From Cytophagales bacterium (lineage in GTDB: Bacteria; Bacteroidota; Bacteroidia; Cytophagales; Thermoflexibacteraceae), in assembly GCA_013299115.1 (NCBI GenBank), contig JAAFKA010000001.1, positions 186,001-250,000 on the forward strand: DNA of 64,000 nucleotides, read 5' to 3'. The notes under the pieces are model-generated. The model did not search any database, had not been told where the DNA came from, and saw only the letters and a list, made by a program, of their open reading frames with translations. Positions 3,931-61,870 of this stretch are shown here, in pieces (the stretch's first letter is position 1; each line of letters starts with the position of its first letter). The position numbers and the translations under genes were made by a program.

Positions 3931-3984
3931 AGTGCCACAGAATTAATACTCAGCAATAACATTTCTTCAAGAAATGTTATTGCT
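3931..3984. repeat. Family A palindromic element, partial copy
   Basis: The core is AGCAATAACATTTCTT / AAGAAATGTTATTGCT, 16-bp perfect arms at 3952-3967 and 3969-3984 with a one-base loop. The left flank from 3931 (AGTGCCACAG...ACTCAG) matches, in reverse complement, the right flank of the complete copy at 32445-32538. It lies between two convergent genes and may also act as a terminator. Confidence 0.65.
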
Positions 3985-11351: not shown

Positions 11352-13166
11352 TCAGATTTCCTGAAACTCTACGCGCAAGACCTTTGCTGTTATGCCCACT
11401 TGGTCAAAAAAACGCAACCAATAAAGTTGTTGTGCCGACAGATTGTCGGTAGGAGATTTTACTTCTATGAAAGAATAGTGGGTTTCTTTCCAAACAAACA
11501 AATCGGGAAAACCTTTGAAAGTGTCTTTGGGTTGTCGCCACATTTCGAGCAAAACAGCTTTGAGGGCAGGCAAAGGCAAGTAACCCACGACCAACACCAC
11601 CAAAGGCAACAAGACTTCGTGCCACTCGACTAAGTTGTTTTGTAAGCCTTGCTTATTTTCATAAGTTATTGATAACCAATTAATTAGTTGCTCTGTTGTT
11701 TGCAAGTTTTCCAATAATTGCAGAATGGCAGGTTGGCGTGAGGCAAAAAAAGTGGGCAAATAAAAATCAGAAGGTCGGCTTTGCAAGGGGTGGTGAATGT
11801 GCGAATCGAAGACAATATTCCAAAAAGTTAAGGCGAAAATTCCTCGCCACACATAATTTTCTACAAAAACTCCTGCATAACCATCGACTTGTAAGGTTGC
11901 TAATACACCCAATTCTACTTGATTTTTATATTGGCTGTCCACCACCAAAGTTGGGGCTGCTTTCAAATATTGCGTTACAGACCGAATACTTTTATTTGTA
12001 ATTATCTGATTTTCATTAGCTTGTGCTTCATTTCTTCTATTTTCTTTTTTCTCTTTCTTTGCCTGTTGCACTTCATATTGAGCCAACCAATCGGCAGCAA
12101 AAGTTTGTTCGGCTGCATTTTGGGGTTTTTCGGCTATTTGCAAACAAAGTTCGTAGGCTTCGGCTTGCCTTGTGAGTTTTGCCAATAACCTGACCTGTTT
12201 TTCACGTGCAGGAGGCAAGGTTGCAAATTGGTACAAAGCCAAAGCCTCTGCCCACAATTTGGCTTTTTCTACCTGTGCTGCCACTTGCAACACCAAACGG
12301 TTGTAACTATTGCGGGCTATTTCGGTCTGCAAAGGTTGAGCAGCAAAATAAGCAAGAAAGTAAGTTGCAATCTCCTGTATTTCAACATTTTGCTGTTTCA
12401 TGTTGGCAAATAAACGACTTGCCTCTGCCCACTTAAATTTTTCCTCTGCCTCTTGGCGGGTCTGAAATTGGGGCGTAAATTGCGTTTCCTCAAAATTTTG
12501 GAAGTGCCTGATGGCAATATCACGCAACACAAATTCGGTCATGTCTTGGTAAGCATTGCCAAAAAATAGGAAACGAATAAAATTTGCCTCTTGCTCAAAA
12601 TTTTGCTTTACAATAACTTGATTATCAGCCCATTCTAAACAGTCGGCAAAACTTACTTTTTCTTTTATTACTTGCACCAACTCCTCTTTTTTCAGTTTGC
12701 GGAGTGCTGCCAACGGATATTCCTTTGTTACCAAAGCCAATTTGCCCAAAGCCAACAATTCATCTTTTGTGAATACTTGCAACAAGTCGACATACAATTT
12801 TTCATTGTTTGAATAGTTCTCATTAGAACTAACATTTCTCAAAGAAATGTTAGTTCTGGGCATTGTTGCAGCAGTTTCGTTATTTTTTAGTTGGTTGGTA
12901 GTAGTGGCAAAATGGTGAGTAATTAAGGTTTGTAAAGCCTGTTCAGGTTGGTTTATTTCGGCATATTGCAAGTCTGCCCATTTAAAAAATAGTCCTTTGC
13001 GGTTATACATACGCAACCAAAGGCATTGGGCATCTTCGGGCAGCGAAGTAAAAAGTTGCAACCATTTTTTTTCGTCTGCGGTCAGTACATGGTCATATTG
13101 CTTTGCTACAAATTGCAACAAATACAAAAAATAGTCTAAATAATATTTGGTGGGTAAAGTAATCAC
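11352..13166 (-). CDS. FAN1-like VRR-NUC domain nuclease, interrupted in frame by a repeat
   Basis: A 604-residue protein resembling bacterial FAN1, a structure-specific nuclease that trims branched DNA and helps repair cross-links. The N-terminal part has LWLRMYNRKGLFFKWADLQY, typical of FAN1, then a SAP-like helical segment (LLQVFTKDELLALGKL), a long helical region with TPR-like character, and a C-terminal VRR-NUC domain (about 540-604). The nuclease motif is visible as FPDLFVW ... FIEVKSPTDNLSAQQ, with the Asp, Glu and Lys of the PD-(D/E)xK fold intact. Residues about 103-115 (RTNISLRNVSS) are encoded by a family A palindrome, which adds a linker without breaking the frame. The 18-base gap to the upstream TlpA gene suggests co-transcription. 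Confidence 0.88.
   Translation of the reverse strand: MITLPTKYYLDYFLYLLQFVAKQYDHVLTADEKKWLQLFTSLPEDAQCLWLRMYNRKGLFFKWADLQYAEINQPEQALQTLITHHFATTTNQLKNNETAATMPRTNISLRNVSSNENYSNNEKLYVDLLQVFTKDELLALGKLALVTKEYPLAALRKLKKEELVQVIKEKVSFADCLEWADNQVIVKQNFEQEANFIRFLFFGNAYQDMTEFVLRDIAIRHFQNFEETQFTPQFQTRQEAEEKFKWAEASRLFANMKQQNVEIQEIATYFLAYFAAQPLQTEIARNSYNRLVLQVAAQVEKAKLWAEALALYQFATLPPAREKQVRLLAKLTRQAEAYELCLQIAEKPQNAAEQTFAADWLAQYEVQQAKKEKKENRRNEAQANENQIITNKSIRSVTQYLKAAPTLVVDSQYKNQVELGVLATLQVDGYAGVFVENYVWRGIFALTFWNIVFDSHIHHPLQSRPSDFYLPTFFASRQPAILQLLENLQTTEQLINWLSITYENKQGLQNNLVEWHEVLLPLVVLVVGYLPLPALKAVLLEMWRQPKDTFKGFPDLFVWKETHYSFIEVKSPTDNLSAQQLYWLRFFDQVGITAKVLRVEFQEI
12825..12857. repeat. Family A palindrome inside the FAN1-like gene
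   Basis: Perfect 15-bp arms AGAACTAACATTTCT (12825-12839) and AGAAATGTTAGTTCT (12843-12857) with loop CAA. The flank to the right (GGGCATTGTTGCA) resembles the flank of the copy at 40202-40258. It is translated in frame as part of the nuclease. Confidence 0.85.
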
Positions 13167-14541: not shown

Positions 14542-14634
14542 TAGAGTTTATGAATAATTTTTTGTTAAAAAACTTGGCAAAAGATGTCATTTTTCAAAAA
14601 AATGACATCTTTGGGTAATTATTCATAAACTCTA
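14542..14634. repeat. Nested double inverted repeat
   Basis: Outer perfect 18-bp arms TAGAGTTTATGAATAATT (14542-14559) and AATTATTCATAAACTCTA (14617-14634). Inside them are perfect 15-bp arms AAAGATGTCATTTTT (14580-14594) and AAAAATGACATCTTT (14598-14612). The inner stem is the same sequence as the hairpin after tRNA-Leu at 27913-27949. It lies between the DnaJ-like gene end and the TlpA-like gene start. Confidence 0.85.
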
Positions 14635-25977: not shown

Positions 25978-27036
25978 ATGAGCAAAGGATACATCAAATA
26001 CTTGTTATTCAGTGTTTTAGCTGTATTTTTTTTACGTTTTGAGGCACAAGCAGATACCCCACAAGGTGATGACAAACCTTTTGACCCAGGTCCAACTATC
26101 ATGCACCACATTTCAGATGCCCACGAATGGCATCTCTGGACAACGACTAATCCTGATGGCACAGACCACCACGTAAGTATTCCGTTGCCCGTTATTTTGT
26201 ACGACAATACAAAAGGTTTGCAGATTTTTTCTTCGGCAAATTTTCACAATCCACAAGCCTTATACAACGGCTACAAATTGGAACATGAGCATATCTACTC
26301 TGCAGATGGGGCAGGCAATGTAATAGAAGAAGGTGGCAAAAAAATGGCACCCCTCGATTTGTCTATTACCAAAAACGTAGCAAGTATGTTAATCTCTGCT
26401 TTGTTGTTGGTAACAATTTTTAGTATGGTGGCAAGTGGCTACAAGAAAAATGCAGGCAAAGCACCAAAAGGCATACAAGCCGTATTCGAACCTGTTATTT
26501 TGTTTGTTCGTGATGATATTGCTATTCCAAACATTGGAGAGAAAAAAGCCGAAAAATATTTGCCTTATCTTTTGACTGTATTTTTCTTTATTTGGCTCAA
26601 CAATTTGTTAGGTTTAATTCCAACAGGAGCAAATGCTTCAGGAAATATAGCCTTTACCTTAACTTTGGCAGCTATCACTGCTCTTATCACAAATTTTTCG
26701 GGCAATGCAGGCTATTGGGGACACATTTTCTGGACTCCCGGTGTGCCTTTGTGGTTGCGTCCTATCATGTTGCCAGTGGAGGTTTTGGGTATCTTAACCA
26801 AACCAATGGCATTGATGATACGTCTTTTTGCTAACATTACCGCAGGACACATGATTATTTTGAGTTTGATTAGTATTATTTTCATCTTCAAAAATGTAGC
26901 CATTGGTATTCCTGTTACAATTTCAGTCGTTGTGATGATGTTCTTAGAGTTATTTGTAGCTGCTTTGCAGGCTTTTATCTTTACTTTATTGTCTGCTCTG
27001 TTTATTGGCACTGCCGTAGAAGAACACCACCATTAA
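25978..27036 (+). CDS. atpB: F1Fo ATP synthase subunit a
   Basis: A 352-residue inner-membrane subunit that forms the proton half-channels against the c-ring. The N-terminal 120 residues, with a signal-like stretch and a His-rich soluble part (HHISDAHEWHLW), form the long extension usual for Bacteroidota. The membrane part holds at least five helices. The essential arginine lies in KPMALMIRLFANITAGH, and the neighbouring LNNLLGLIPTGANASGNIAFT also fits. It is followed after 197 bases by atpE. The genes atpF, atpH and atpA do not follow, so the usual operon is split. Confidence 0.98.
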   Translation: MSKGYIKYLLFSVLAVFFLRFEAQADTPQGDDKPFDPGPTIMHHISDAHEWHLWTTTNPDGTDHHVSIPLPVILYDNTKGLQIFSSANFHNPQALYNGYKLEHEHIYSADGAGNVIEEGGKKMAPLDLSITKNVASMLISALLLVTIFSMVASGYKKNAGKAPKGIQAVFEPVILFVRDDIAIPNIGEKKAEKYLPYLLTVFFFIWLNNLLGLIPTGANASGNIAFTLTLAAITALITNFSGNAGYWGHIFWTPGVPLWLRPIMLPVEVLGILTKPMALMIRLFANITAGHMIILSLISIIFIFKNVAIGIPVTISVVVMMFLELFVAALQAFIFTLLSALFIGTAVEEHHH

Positions 27037-27138: not shown

Positions 27139-27174
27139 AAGAAGTAACATTTCTCAAAAAAATGTTACTTCTTA
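27139..27174. repeat. Family A core palindrome between atpB and atpE
   Basis: Arms AAGAAGTAACATTT (27139-27152) and AAATGTTACTTCTT (27160-27173), in the 197-base gap. The surrounding sequence is rich in degenerate AATGTTGAAT-type repeats. In the transcript it could act as a terminator or attenuator between the two genes, but no measurement is possible here. Confidence 0.7.
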
Positions 27175-31355: not shown

Positions 31356-32303
31356 TTATCGATTAACCACGCCCATTTTGCAAAATTTATCTATCCTTTG
31401 CTCTATACGTTGTGCGGGAGTAAGTTGTTCTAAGGTAGCACAAGTTTCTAAAATTACTCTTTTCACTTCGGCTGCTATGGTAGGTATAGCCGTATGCGCA
31501 CCGCCCAACGGTTCTTTGATAATGCCGTCTATCAAATTGAACTTCATCATGTCGGGTGCGGTGAGTTTCAATGCCTCCGCAGCTTGTTCTTTGTAGTCCC
31601 AGCTACGCCACAAGATAGACGAGCAAGACTCTGGCGAAATAACTGAATACCATGTATTTTCGAGCATAAAAACCCTGTCGCCAATGGCAATACCCAAAGC
31701 CCCGCCTGATGCTCCTTCGCCTATGATGATGCAAATGACAGGTACTTTGAGCATAAACATCTCTTTTAGGTTGCGAGCTATGGCTTCGCCTTGTCCTCTT
31801 TCCTCTGCCTCTATGCCAGGGAAAGCACCTGGCGTATCTATAAATGTAACAATAGGCTTGTTAAATTTTTCGGCAACTTTCATCAGTCGCAAGGCTTTGC
31901 GGTAGCCTTCGGGGTTGGGCATACCAAAATTGCGATACTGCCTTTGTTTGGTGTTTCGACCTTTTTGCTGCCCAATGAGCATAAAAGTTTTGCCTTCGAT
32001 AGCAGCCAAACCACCAATCATTGCCTTGTCGTCTGCCACATTTCTGTCGCCATGCAACTCTATAAAATCATCTGTAATTTGTTCTATATAGTCTAAGGTA
32101 TAAGGTCTATCAGCATGACGAGAAAGCTGTACTCTCTGCCAACGAGTCAGGTTTTGGTAGGTTTCTGTTTTTAGGGCAATAATACGCTGTTCGAGGAGCA
32201 TAGTAGCCTCTTCTACATTCATTCCATTTTGCGATGCCAATTTTTTCATTTCGGCTAACTTCGCCTCCAATTCCACAATAGGTTTTTCAAAGTCCAATAG
32301 CAT
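31356..32303 (-). CDS. accA: Acetyl-CoA carboxylase carboxyltransferase subunit alpha
   Basis: A 315-residue subunit that, with AccD, transfers the carboxyl group from biotin to acetyl-CoA, giving malonyl-CoA for fatty-acid synthesis. The start [19 protein letters not shown] is the usual helical lead. The crotonase-like core shows [58 protein letters not shown] and [32 protein letters not shown], all family signatures. It heads the operon accA-membrane protein-LOG. Confidence 0.98.
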
Positions 32304-32424
32304 GGTCGTTTAGGTGCAATATTTTGATATAACATAGCAAAAAAACATAAACTTTTGGTAATAACAAAAATATTTGGAAAAACTTACAACTTGTTGCTAT
32401 TTTTTATAATATTTGCCCTCCATT

Positions 32425-32556
32425 AGCAGTAACATTTCTCAAAGAGGTAGTGCCATACAAGTTATGCTGTAACTACCTTAGAACTAACATTTCTTTAAGA
32501 AATGTTAGTTCTGAGTATTACATCTGTGGCACTACCCTCAAAGAAATGTTACTGCT
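32425..32556. mobile_element. Family A: complete MITE-like element inserted into the core of another
   Basis: The outer palindrome AGCAGTAACATTTCT-CAA-AGAAATGTTACTGCT is split. Its left half ends at 32444 (...CTCAAAG) and its right half starts at 32539 (CAAAGAAATG...). CAAAG is present on both sides of the insert, a 5-bp target duplication. The insert (32445-32538, 94 bp) begins AGGTAGTGCCA and ends TGGCACTACCCT, near-perfect inverted ends, and holds the core AGAACTAACATTTCT/AGAAATGTTAGTTCT. It has no coding capacity. Confidence 0.85.
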
Positions 32557-32583
32557 GAACATTACCCAAATTTTCAATCAAAT

Positions 32584-32808
32584 ATGGCAACAACAAAAAT
32601 TACAATTAAAAGCAACAGTGCTATCCGCATCGAAGGAGATTTCGAGATAGTAGATTCAGAGGGCAAGGTTTATGGTTTGGGCGGTAGAGAAGTGATTTCT
32701 CTCTGCCGTTGTGGACTGACAAAAAATGCCCCTTTTTGCGATGGTTCTCACAAAGAAAATTTCACTCACGAAGCAACAGCTTTCGATTTACCTGAGAAAA
32801 AAGTGTAA
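32584..32808 (+). CDS. CDGSH iron-sulphur domain protein
   Basis: A 74-residue protein with one CDGSH domain, binding a 2Fe-2S cluster through three Cys and one His. The motif is complete: Cys41 and Cys43 (LCRCGLTKNAP), Cys52 and His56 (FCDGSHKE). Before it is a short beta part, NSAIRIEGDFEIVDSEG, as in other stand-alone bacterial members. Roles in redox or iron handling are proposed for the family; none can be fixed here. The gene is alone, starting after the nested repeat and ending at a terminator shared with the next gene. Confidence 0.95.
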   Translation: MATTKITIKSNSAIRIEGDFEIVDSEGKVYGLGGREVISLCRCGLTKNAPFCDGSHKENFTHEATAFDLPEKKV

Positions 32809-32811
32809 AAC

Positions 32812-32864
32812 AGTAATCAGTTATCAGTGAACAGTTTTTTACTGTTCATTGATAACTGATTACT
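32812..32864. terminator. Bidirectional terminator
   Basis: 24-bp arms with a single mismatch (32812-32835 and 32841-32864), five-base T loop, between the CDGSH gene and the convergent binding-protein gene, whose stop codon lies inside the right arm. Confidence 0.85.
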
Positions 32865-34566
32865 CTAAGACTGTCATCTCCAATTTCCCTTCCTTAAATT
32901 TACCTATGCTCATTTTTTGGTTATCGTGTCCTTTGGTGTAGTCAAAACCTTGCAGTAGCAAACCTTCTACTTTTTCGTTGCCCAATGATTTGCTCAAATC
33001 ACGACCATATTTTTTGAGCATTTTAGCAAAATAATACAAGGCGTCATGCCCCAAATAAGAAAAACGCGAAGGTATCATATTCGACTTGTCTATGTACTCT
33101 GTATCAAAATTGCGGACTGCGGGCTGTGCGTAATCTACGTGGTAACTAAACAAAAAATGAACATTGGTTTGTTCTAATTGTTCGTAGGTAACTTGCTGAA
33201 AGTCAAGCCAATCTTGTGTGGTAATGATGTTCAGGTTGAGATTTTGCGACTCTATGCCACTCAATAAATTCACTGCTAAAGTTTGGTCTGTGGCAGCCAC
33301 AAAAATACATCTTTTGGTGGTCTTGCCCACCAAAGTTGCCAATTCGGTAGAAACCACCTTAAATGCACTGTATTTGGAGGCTATGTTTCGCAAAATGGTA
33401 ACTTTGCCATTCAATTCTTTAAATTTGGCTGCAAAATTATGAGCCAATACAGAGTCTTGGCGTTGGCTACCAAAATAAACAATGGTCGTATCAGAAAAGT
33501 TTTTTATTACATAGTCGGCTGCTTTTGCACCCAAACTTTCAGAGCTAATTTCGGTCAAAAAAGTGTTGTCATATTTTTTCAGCACTTCGGCATTGCCTGT
33601 GAGTGGATTGACCAAGCAAATTTGGTTTTTTATTGCAAAATCCACCAAAGGCGGTGTATCTTTTGGAAACATGGGACCCAGCAAGAGGTCTGCATTTTGC
33701 AAAGTTGGGTTTTGCAAGTGTGCTTTGATACGATTTTCGTCTTTTTGGGTGTCGTACAAAGACAATTCTATTGCTATGCCTTCTTTTCTTAGTTGGTCTT
33801 GTGCCACCAACAGCCCATAATAATAGTCTATCACAAATTGGTTTTTGCGTTGGGCTTTCACTGCTTCGGTTTCATTGATAAGCATAGGCAAAAAAGCAGC
33901 TACTTTTATTGGATTTCCTAATGTTTTAGTAGTTGCAACAGGTTGATTGACAACAGGTTGTGTTTCTTTTGGTACGATTGTTTCCTCCACATATTTTTTG
34001 CTTAGTTCGTCTAACAAAACTTTGTCCGTAGTGGTGGCTCTTTGCTCATACAGCACCTGCCAAAGCCTATAACTAATTTGCTCATTTTCAGGATAGACTT
34101 TATAGAGTTGTTTTAAAGCAGGCAAATTGGTAGTTTTTTTCAGATAATTGGCTTGCAAGGCTTGGGCTTTTGCTCGCAAAGTTGGGCTATAAATTTTGTT
34201 TAGGTAAGTAGTAGCCTCTACCAAATTTTCTTGACAAAATAAACTTTCAGCTAATAAGTAGTTGATTTCGTCATTTTTTTTCAAATTGCCTGCCCCATTC
34301 ACTAAGGTTTTCAAAGTTTGGGAAGTGGTGGCATACTCTTTTTGCTGGAACGCAGTGTAGGCATAATAAAAGTGAGCATACTCATAAAAAGCATTGTTGG
34401 TGTGCCTTTCCAACAAAGGTTTGAGTGCATCTTTTGCTAAATCAAATCTTTTTTCGTTCAGCAAATTCTTTGCGTAGTTGTACTTGTTCTTAAAATCTTG
34501 TTCTGAAGTTTGGGCAAACAGCGAAGAACTGACAAATAAAGCAAAAAAAAGGTATAAATGTTTCAT
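32860..34566 (-). CDS. Periplasmic-binding-type (LivK/LpoA-like) protein with N-terminal TPR
   Basis: A 568-residue exported protein (signal peptide MKHLYLFFALFVSSSLFAQ). Residues about 22-190 are TPR-like helices (NYAKNLLNEKRFDLAKDALKPLLE, FYYAYTAFQQKEYATTSQTLK). From about 220 it shows the type 1 periplasmic-binding fold: IKVAAFLPMLINE, IELSLYDTQKDENR, ADLLLGPMFP and CIFVAATDQTLAVNLLSGI. No transporter genes are nearby. TPR plus a binding-protein fold is the plan of LpoA, the activator of PBP1a, so a cell-wall role is possible, but amino-acid binding is equally open. Confidence 0.82.
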   Translation of the reverse strand: MKHLYLFFALFVSSSLFAQTSEQDFKNKYNYAKNLLNEKRFDLAKDALKPLLERHTNNAFYEYAHFYYAYTAFQQKEYATTSQTLKTLVNGAGNLKKNDEINYLLAESLFCQENLVEATTYLNKIYSPTLRAKAQALQANYLKKTTNLPALKQLYKVYPENEQISYRLWQVLYEQRATTTDKVLLDELSKKYVEETIVPKETQPVVNQPVATTKTLGNPIKVAAFLPMLINETEAVKAQRKNQFVIDYYYGLLVAQDQLRKEGIAIELSLYDTQKDENRIKAHLQNPTLQNADLLLGPMFPKDTPPLVDFAIKNQICLVNPLTGNAEVLKKYDNTFLTEISSESLGAKAADYVIKNFSDTTIVYFGSQRQDSVLAHNFAAKFKELNGKVTILRNIASKYSAFKVVSTELATLVGKTTKRCIFVAATDQTLAVNLLSGIESQNLNLNIITTQDWLDFQQVTYEQLEQTNVHFLFSYHVDYAQPAVRNFDTEYIDKSNMIPSRFSYLGHDALYYFAKMLKKYGRDLSKSLGNEKVEGLLLQGFDYTKGHDNQKMSIGKFKEGKLEMTVLE

Positions 34567-40171: not shown

Positions 40172-40258
40172 AGTACTACCTAAGTAACACTAAAAAAACG
40201 TCAGAACCAACATTTTTCAAAGAAATGTTGGTTCTGAGCATTGCATTTGCGACACTCC
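40172..40258. repeat. Family A element, degenerate copy
   Basis: Core CAGAACCAACATTT / AAATGTTGGTTCTG (40202-40236), followed by GAGCATTGCATTTGCGACACTCC, which resembles the flank of the copy inside the FAN1-like gene. The left end (GTAGTACTACC) is decayed. Confidence 0.6.
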
Positions 40259-42192: not shown

Positions 42193-42287
42193 TTGGTAGT
42201 GCCTCAGACATAATGCTCAAAACTAACAGTTATTATAGAACTATTAGTTCTAATGAAGTTACAGCATTACCTGTGTGGCACTACCCT
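42193..42287. repeat. Family A element, nearly complete copy
   Basis: About 95 bp, inverted ends GGTAGTGCC (from 42195) and GGCACTACCCT (to 42287), inside ATAATGCTCA...ACTAACAGTT...AGAACTATTAGTTCTAATGAAGTTACAGCATTACCTGTG. The central palindrome is partly decayed. No clear target duplication was seen. Confidence 0.75.
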
Positions 42288-48211: not shown

Positions 48212-48286
48212 TTTGTTTTTGTCATTCTGAGCATAGCGAAGAATCTGAGTCAGATTCTTCGCTATGCTCAGAATGACAAAAACAAA
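48212..48286. repeat. Perfect 36-bp inverted repeat (GTCATTCTGAGCATAGCGAAG type)
   Basis: Arms 48212-48247 and 48251-48286 with a three-base loop (AGT). The core CATTCTGAGC-AGCGAAGAATC is a sequence that recurs in many bacterial genomes. It fills the gap between sod and the next gene. Confidence 0.9.
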
Positions 48287-58143: not shown

Positions 58144-58234
58144 TGGTGTGCCACACAAGTCATGATGTGGCTCTCTTAGAAGTAACATTTCTCAAAGAAA
58201 TGTTACTTTTGAGAATTGAATCTGTGGCATCACC
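58144..58234. repeat. Family A element overlapping the end of a glycosyltransferase gene
   Basis: Ends GGTGTGCCA and TGGCATCACC, core AGAAGTAACATTTCT-CAA-AGAAATGTTACTTTT near 58179-58211. The right end (CACCCTA) runs into the stop codon of the glycosyltransferase (CTA at 58235-58237 on the plus strand). Confidence 0.75.
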
Positions 58235-59222: not shown

Positions 59223-59316
59223 TACGTTGGCAATGGTGCTTTTCGCACCTTGACAATCGTATAAAAGTAGTTTTAGGTACGATTGTCAAGGTGCGAAAAG
59301 CACCATTGCCAACGTA
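59223..59316. repeat. Perfect 39-bp inverted repeat
   Basis: Arms 59223-59261 and 59278-59316 are perfect inverse copies, starting TACGTTGGCAATGGTGC, with a 16-base loop. It lies between the acyl-CoA dehydrogenase stop and the glycosyltransferase start, both on the minus strand. Confidence 0.92.
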
Positions 59317-61751: not shown

Positions 61752-61815
61752 ATTTTTTTATAAGGTGTTGCTACCAAGCAATACCTTTTTAGTAGCCCAA
61801 TAAAGGTAATACTCC

Positions 61816-61870
61816 GAACTAACATTTTTCAAAGAAATGTTAGTTCTAATGAAGTCTAAGCATTACTTAT
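61816..61870. repeat. Family A element, partial copy
   Basis: Perfect arms GAACTAACATTT and AAATGTTAGTTC (61816-61846), followed by TAATGAAGTCTAAGCATTAC, as in the copy at 42193-42287. The other flank is lost. Confidence 0.65.

What the first reader, a model, noticed from the sequence alone, without database searches (positions are those of the whole stretch)
32425..32556. A complete 94-bp palindromic element inserted inside another copy, with a 5-bp target duplication
The outer core AGCAGTAACATTTCT...AGAAATGTTACTGCT is split by a unit with inverted ends AGG(G)TAGTGCCA. CAAAG occurs at 32440-32444 and again at 32539-32543. Removing 32445-32538 and one CAAAG restores the outer palindrome perfectly. 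This is direct evidence of transposition of a very short non-coding element, so the dispersed palindromes of this window are MITE-like and not mere terminators. No transposase is present; the mobilising enzyme should carry the same ends.
Basis: seen in the sequence. Interest (0 to 1): 0.85.

Follow-up and report, generated by a model that had tools for sequence, protein, structure and literature searches.

The report
Nested IS1-type mini-transposon with hairpin core
A 91-base gene-less jumping element, apparently moved by an IS1-type enzyme, landed inside an older copy's hairpin; the hairpin itself also occurs alone in related bacteria, often just after genes.

Summary
The nested insertion is real, with other boundaries. 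Of 32 held two-ended copies, 14 have exact 8-bp duplications, against 0.2% of mismatched flank pairs. A second nested copy exists (L013). IS1-family elements in the same genome and genus have related ends (L040, L110: 17-18 of 24 positions); another, L037, has an exact 8-bp duplication. So this is an IS1-type MITE, a new member of a known kind; no parent with GGTAGTGCC ends was found. Less expected: the central 33-bp hairpin also occurs without MITE ends in three genera (125, 44, 27, 27 places), two of whose genomes show no MITE end at the pattern threshold. Outer stem pairs co-vary. End-less copies favour gene 3' ends: convergent:divergent gaps 15:2 (15:4 with nothing dropped), against 5:11 for two-ended copies. 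In G002 an unrelated terminal sequence also flanks such hairpins. Whether these hairpins end transcription or are the surviving part of old MITEs is open.

The parts
32446..32536 (.). 91-bp MITE, GGTAGTGCC...GGCACTACC, no ORF of 80 aa or more
   Evidence: 99% and 98% identical to copies at G000:C5 and G000:C58
32438..32445 (.). left 8-bp target-site duplicate CTCAAAGA
32537..32544 (.). right 8-bp target-site duplicate CTCAAAGA
32446..32469 (+). left inverted end, IS1-like (18 of 24 positions as in IS L110/L040)
32513..32536 (-). right inverted end (16 of 24 positions as in IS L110/L040)
32480..32512 (.). inner 33-bp hairpin AGAACTAACATTTCT-TTA-AGAAATGTTAGTTCT
32425..32445 (.). left part of the interrupted outer hairpin (older element); overlaps the left duplicate
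32537..32556 (.). right part of the interrupted outer hairpin; followed by GAACATTAC, a probable remnant of an older MITE arm
   Evidence: read by eye
42195..42285 (.). second two-ended copy in the window, older (flanks match 6 of 8)
58178..58210 (.). hairpin of a decayed copy with both ends recognisable by eye
3952..3984 (.). hairpin of a decayed copy with remnants of one end
27140..27172 (.). hairpin without ends, 103 bp after the stop of the ORF 25978-27036
12825..12857 (.). hairpin with arm remnants but no ends; falls inside an ORF call (11352-13166, -)
61815..61847 (.). hairpin with arm remnants but no ends
31356..32303 (-). accA (acetyl-CoA carboxylase alpha), divergent neighbour
   Evidence: PF03255
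32584..32808 (+). CDGSH iron-sulphur protein gene; the MITE ends 47 bp before its ATG
   Evidence: PF09360

Best explanation
The 91-bp unit is a non-autonomous MITE mobilised in trans by an IS1-family transposase, which makes 8-bp target duplications. It inserted into the hairpin of an older, decayed copy of the same family between accA and a CDGSH gene. Shown: ends, 8-bp duplications, copy number, a second nested case, and IS1-family elements with related ends in the same genome and genus. Inferred: that such a transposase moved it, and that the outer hairpin is a decayed MITE rather than a lone hairpin.
For: 14 of 32 held own-genome copies and 2 of 5 sister-genome copies have exact 8-bp duplications. 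PF03400: 5 hits in G000, 6 in G001, 7 of 13 family genomes with a hit. L037 (815 bp, own genome) has exact duplicate AAATTATG, and L112 (841 bp, G011) has CTCTAATG. L110 (799 bp, G001) and L040 (871 bp, own genome) have end GGTAGTGTTACAGAATGTATGCTG, 17 and 18 of 24 positions as in the two MITE end forms; 0 of 20000 shuffles of one MITE end reach 17. L037, L114 and L116 share 13-15 (55, 2 and 37 of 20000 shuffles reach the value for that MITE end). The L110 protein hits PF03400 at 1.6e-36. In print: a composite transposon of Moraxella osloensis bounded by two IS most like the IS1-family ISAba3, with 24-bp ends GGTGGTGTTTCAAAAAGTATGCTG and 8-bp TSDs around the whole (PMC6382973, passages).
Against: No IS with GGTAGTGCC ends was seen in the 23 PF03400 loci held; 10 of these gave no end pair at all. 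The own-genome IS1 hits are partial or interrupted. L110 and L040, the ones with the closest ends, show no clear duplication. 18 of 32 MITE copies lack an exact duplication, 6 of them matching only 1-2 of 8. No empty site in a relative could be shown.
Confidence: 0.87

Rival explanations
1. On the hairpin: the core is an independent, older genomic module, a conserved bidirectional terminator-like 3'-end hairpin, that the IS1-type MITE picked up and spreads.
For: Hairpin places 125/44/27/27 in G000-G003, but MITE-end matches 98/20/0/0. End-less copies: convergent 15, divergent 2, closer to the upstream stop in 28 of 38 tandem cases. Outer pairs co-vary: pair 5 formed in 71 of 78 against 32.4 in shuffles, with CG 33, AT 28, GC 8, TA 2. 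In G002 other ends (AGGACTTACGCA) flank two such hairpins.
Against: No directional U-tract: in tandem gaps T is raised 7-9 nt outward on both sides, and runs of 4 or more T within 14 nt are found in 12 of 39 downstream and 15 of 39 upstream flanks; 6 or more T in the first 8 nt in only 8 of 50 gene-side views, 7 of 50 on the other side, 1 of 50 further out. With nothing dropped the counts weaken to 15:4 and 28 of 41. In G000 alone the tandem bias is not significant (7 of 11). Some end-less G000 copies are plainly decayed MITEs (L165, window 40203-40235). Gene calls were ORF-based.
Confidence: 0.4
2. On the hairpin: end-less copies are only the longest-lived part of decayed MITEs. They survive at gene 3' ends because insertions in promoters are purged, and their perfect pairing is kept by quasipalindrome repair (template switching; recalled mechanism), not by function.
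For: Convergent:divergent counts run 5:11 (two ends), 7:5 (one end), 15:2 (none). Symmetrised copies exist: L043 pairs over nearly its whole length, L278 has a long palindrome of non-MITE sequence around the hairpin. One G002 and two G003 loci show one end-like 9-mer.
Against: Zero ends at the pattern threshold in G002 and G003, each with 27 hairpin places; many hairpins there end AGAAA/TTTCT rather than AGAAC/GTTCT. The inner hairpin sequence stays near constant, although the search pattern selected for that.
Confidence: 0.45
3. The direct repeat at this site is a chance match in AT-rich sequence.
For: Flanks are AT-rich: 5 of 8 or more match in about 17% of control pairs.
Against: 14 of 32 exact 8/8 against 0.2% of control pairs, and one duplicate plus the flanks gives a perfect hairpin.
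Confidence: 0.01

Closest known systems
IS1-family insertion sequences (e.g. ISAba3-like copies; recalled: IS1 of E. coli)
   Same: GG-starting ends of about 24 bp with GGTAGTG...ATGCT; 8-bp duplications at own L037, at L112, and around the ISAba3-like composite of PMC6382973 (passages)
   Different: no transposase; 91 bp instead of about 800; end positions 8-9 are CC, not TT or GT
MITEAba12 (PMC6382973, abstract and passages)
   Same: about 0.1-kb bacterial MITE with ends like co-resident ISs; TSDs in 36 of 90 copies
   Different: related to ISAba12 (9-bp TSD, GGCTTTGTTGCA ends)
SPRITE, BOX and RUP of Streptococcus pneumoniae (review PMC10969869, passages)
   Same: small repeats, one terminator-like, that insert into one another
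   Different: other host phylum (recalled); not compared by sequence here
BrickBuilt MITE of Porphyromonas gingivalis (PMC4596501, passages)
   Same: MITE of a Bacteroidota host (phylum recalled)
   Different: contains a minisatellite; TSDs of varying length in 3 of 4 intact copies

Membership tests
MITE | short, non-coding, terminal inverted repeats | tested here: met
   91 bp, perfect 9-bp outer ends, no ORF of 80 aa or more
MITE | target-site duplication of constant length | tested here: met
   exact 8 bp in 14 of 32 held copies
MITE | multiple dispersed copies | tested here: met
   14 exact-ended places in G000; 30 matches from 15 scored of 166 candidates in G000
IS1-family derivative | ends like those of an IS1-family element in the host | tested here: met
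   16-18 of 24 positions against L110/L040, over four MITE end sequences; 12-15 against L037, L114 and L116
IS1-family derivative | 8-9 bp duplications (range recalled) | tested here: met
   8 bp for the MITE and for IS L037 and L112
IS1-family derivative | a parent IS with the same ends in the genome | tested here: not met
   none with GGTAGTGCC ends in the 23 PF03400 loci held from 7 of 13 family genomes; 10 loci gave no end pair, so a parent in an assembly gap is possible
IS1-family derivative | mobilisation by IS1-type transposase | not testable with these tools
   needs a transposition assay
Intrinsic terminator (end-less hairpin) | stable hairpin downstream of genes | tested here: met
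Intrinsic terminator (end-less hairpin) | U-tract directly after the stem | tested here: not met
   6 or more T in the first 8 nt in 8 of 50; T raised at +7 to +9, on both sides
DNA uptake sequence pair | half-site over-represented also as single copies | tested here: not met
   in the window 12 of 14 half-site matches belong to inverted pairs; window only
Known RNA family (Rfam) | match above gathering score | tested here: not met
   0 matches in 31900-33100

The most novel reading that the evidence does not exclude
A 33-bp covarying hairpin is a genomic module in its own right, shared by three genera of one Cytophagales family, placed mainly at gene 3' ends, and carried by at least two MITE-like elements with unrelated ends. 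The MITE would be a vehicle that scatters ready-made 3'-end hairpins.
Probability: 0.3. Interest if true: 0.6.

Novelty: new member of a known kind. Interest (0 to 1): 0.4.

Why it matters
The nested copy gives clean direct evidence of transposition, and it fixes the true ends and duplication length, so a mobilising enzyme family can be named. The link between a mobile carrier and dispersed gene-end hairpins makes a general question testable: do bacterial MITEs supply transcription terminators that hosts keep after the transposon ends have decayed?

Tried and rejected
Empty sites in relatives: accA loci of G001-G003 and three further genomes carry no element by pattern scan, but where I read the sequence beyond accA the neighbours differ, so this is not a clean empty site. 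For L016 the only longer flank matches, both to the right of the element, lie on two different contigs of G002; nothing comparable was listed for G001 or G003. Hairpins at orthologous genes: of 12 cross-genome rows, one shows hairpins close to the same end of the same gene (G002 L227 and window 27140-27172, in L050), about what I would expect by chance from the copy numbers (estimate made in the head). Uptake-sequence reading: not supported. Transposase scan of genome contigs: 9 loci; none with GGTAGTGCC ends among the five that I scanned, two of which are the contigs of L110 and L116 again. Paper searches listed no paper that I recognised as describing this element; this covers only that library and those terms, mostly from listings.

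Rows dropped and limits of counts: six hairpins of the G002 AGGACTTACGCA composite (L230 twice, L236 twice, L245, L246) were dropped; with them the end-less class is 79, convergent 15, divergent 4, tandem 28 of 41 nearer the stop (p 0.028), Fisher p 0.007. They were not dropped. 'End-less' or 'bare' means no 9-bp end within 2 mismatches in 60 bp on the expected side, so it includes some plainly decayed MITEs. The '<=40 bp from a gene' counts cannot be compared between end-less and two-ended copies, because MITE arms keep the hairpin about 30 bp away. One search also printed counts of 'exact TSD of exactly n'; that test was badly written and is not used.

Full report
Observation. One search shows the site. 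Read with the flanks, the repeat on both sides is CTCAAAGA (32438-32445, 32537-32544), 8 bp, and the unit between is 32446-32536, 91 bp, GGTAGTGCC...GGCACTACC. One duplicate plus the outer flanks gives AGCAGTAACATTTCTCAAAGAAATGTTACTGCT, a perfect 15-bp stem with loop CAA (read by eye), the same form as the cores of other copies.

Host. The window's genome (G000, 5.5 Mb, 74 contigs) is unnamed. Its same-genus relative G001 holds an element (L110) that one search found, 100% identical and on a contig of the same length, in a MAG titled 'Cytophagales bacterium isolate RE-15aug16-245'; so I take the host to be of that order (inference).

Copies and duplications. G000 has 14 places with both 9-bp ends exact and 0 in the reversed control, and many diverged copies. 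Among the loci I held, 35 places had both ends within 2 mismatches each and 32 of these contained the hairpin. Of the 32, 14 match 8/8, 2 match 7/8, 6 match 6/8, 4 match 5/8, 3 match 2/8 and 3 match 1/8. Left flank of one copy against right flank of another gives 8/8 in 0.2% of 992 pairs. In G001 2 of 5 match 8/8. The held loci come from best-scoring and first-listed matches, not from the whole genome. A second nested copy is L013 (G000:C13:86420-86510): a unit with duplicate ACAATGTT inside the hairpin of an older copy whose left end is still GGTATTGCCACAACTGTAATGC.

Enzyme. PF03400 (IS1 transposase) has 5 hits in G000 and 6 in G001; 7 of 13 family genomes have at least one. Ends around them: L037 (own genome), 815 bp, GGTAGTGGTAACAAAAGTATGATA with exact 8-bp duplicate AAATTATG; L112 (G011), 841 bp, GGTAGTT-type ends with exact duplicate CTCTAATG; L040 (own genome), 871 bp, and L110 (G001), 799 bp with an uninterrupted 231-aa frame, both GGTAGTGTTACAGAATGTATGCTG and without a clear duplicate. 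The MITE end forms GGTAGTGCCACAGATGTAATGCTC and GGTAGTGCCACACAAGTAATGCTG share 17 and 18 of 24 positions with the latter; 0 of 20000 shuffles of the first reach 17. Against L037 they share 13 and 14. Pfam places the proteins of L110, L116 and L112 in PF03400. A printed example, a composite transposon bounded by two ISAba3-like IS of the IS1 family, has similar 24-bp ends and 8-bp duplications (PMC6382973, passages). So IS1 type is well supported. Against it: no IS with GGTAGTGCC ends was seen in 23 PF03400 loci, 10 of which gave no end pair, and the own-genome transposase matches are partial or interrupted. The mobiliser may be lost, in an assembly gap, or a cross-acting relative.

Hairpin. 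The core TAACATTTYTNNNARAAATGTTA (up to 1 mismatch) has 125, 44, 27 and 27 places in G000-G003, 2 in G012 and 1 each in four further genomes; 9 of 98 genomes in all. The reversed control is 0 in G000-G003 and 1 in four of the other genomes. With up to 2 mismatches G000 has 159. The MITE end pattern (22 positions, up to 2 mismatches) has 98 matches in G000, 20 in G001, 0 in G002, 0 in G003 and at most 3 in any other genome, 12 of 98 genomes in all; the control is 0 in G000-G003. At a looser threshold one G002 and two G003 loci show one end-like 9-mer. Twenty stretches each from G001, G002 and G003 show mostly hairpins without ends; at least three of the G001 ones have an end in view. These stretches were chosen from pattern matches and from DNA matches to the MITE.

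Pairing. Pairs 1-5 of the stem lie outside the search pattern, though some loci came from DNA matches to the MITE that covered them. In 78 distinct end-less copies pair 5 is formed in 71 (CG 33, AT 28, GC 8, TA 2) against a shuffle mean of 32.4, pair 2 in 70 against 58.1, pair 3 in 70 against 62.5; pair 1 (69 against 69.3) and pair 4 (76 against 75.0) hardly vary, and positions just outside the stem show no excess. Six of these hairpins belong to the G002 composite described below. This shows co-variation, not its cause: selection for the hairpin or palindrome-templated repair would both give it. Copies such as L043 (pairing over nearly the whole element), L202 and L278 show that symmetrisation beyond the hairpin happens.

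Place. With simple ORF calls, end-less hairpins (73 after dropping six of the G002 composite) lie in 15 convergent, 2 divergent and 39 tandem gaps; the other 17 are inside ORF calls or at locus edges. In 28 of 38 tandem cases they are nearer the upstream stop than the next start (p 0.005). With nothing dropped: 15, 4, 42 and 28 of 41 (p 0.028). Two-ended copies (36): 5 convergent, 11 divergent, 17 tandem (7 of 17 nearer the stop). One-ended copies (27): 7, 5, 13 (5 of 13). Fisher test of 15:2 against 5:11 gives p 0.0013, of 15:4 against 5:11 p 0.007. In G000 alone the tandem result is 7 of 11, not significant. Window gaps of 50 bp or more sum to 1195 bp convergent and 2091 bp divergent. No U-tract directly follows the stem in most copies: 6 or more T in the first 8 nt in 8 of 50, 7 of 50 on the other side, 1 of 50 further out. 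In tandem gaps T is raised at +7 to +9 on both sides, and runs of 4 or more T are found in 12 of 39 downstream and 15 of 39 upstream flanks. So 3'-end placement is supported and termination is not shown.

Second carrier. In G002, loci L230, L236, L245 and L246 show ends like AGGACTTACGCA around hairpins of the same class, two per element where the whole element is in view (L230, L236). I did not test its duplications or its enzyme family.

Conclusion. The finding is an ordinary kind of thing, well documented here: a nested IS1-type MITE. The unexpected part is the hairpin that outlives or predates it. Two readings, independent or exapted gene-end hairpin against surviving relic, remain open.

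Noticed in passing
window 14542-14634; also L014 and L047: A second MITE-like family: ends TAGAGTTTATGAATAATT, central hairpin of the type GATGTCATTTTTTTGAAAAATGACATC.
   Followed up: no
L230, L236, L245, L246 (genome G002): Composite element with ends like AGGACTTACGCA carrying hairpins of the AACATTTCT class.
   Followed up: partly
L043 1470-1555, L202, L278, L251: Copies or hairpin flanks turned into long perfect palindromes, as if one arm had been copied from the other.
   Followed up: partly
window 48212-48286: Perfect 37-bp-arm palindrome with TCATTCTGAGCATAGCGAAGAATC, of another family; a near-identical stretch stands in L194.
   Followed up: no
window 59223-59316 and 32812-32864: Further long perfect or near-perfect inverted repeats not of this family.
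   Followed up: no
L039 near 2217-2363 (G000:C8): Three IS1-like ends stacked within about 150 bp near a partial IS1 transposase match.
   Followed up: no
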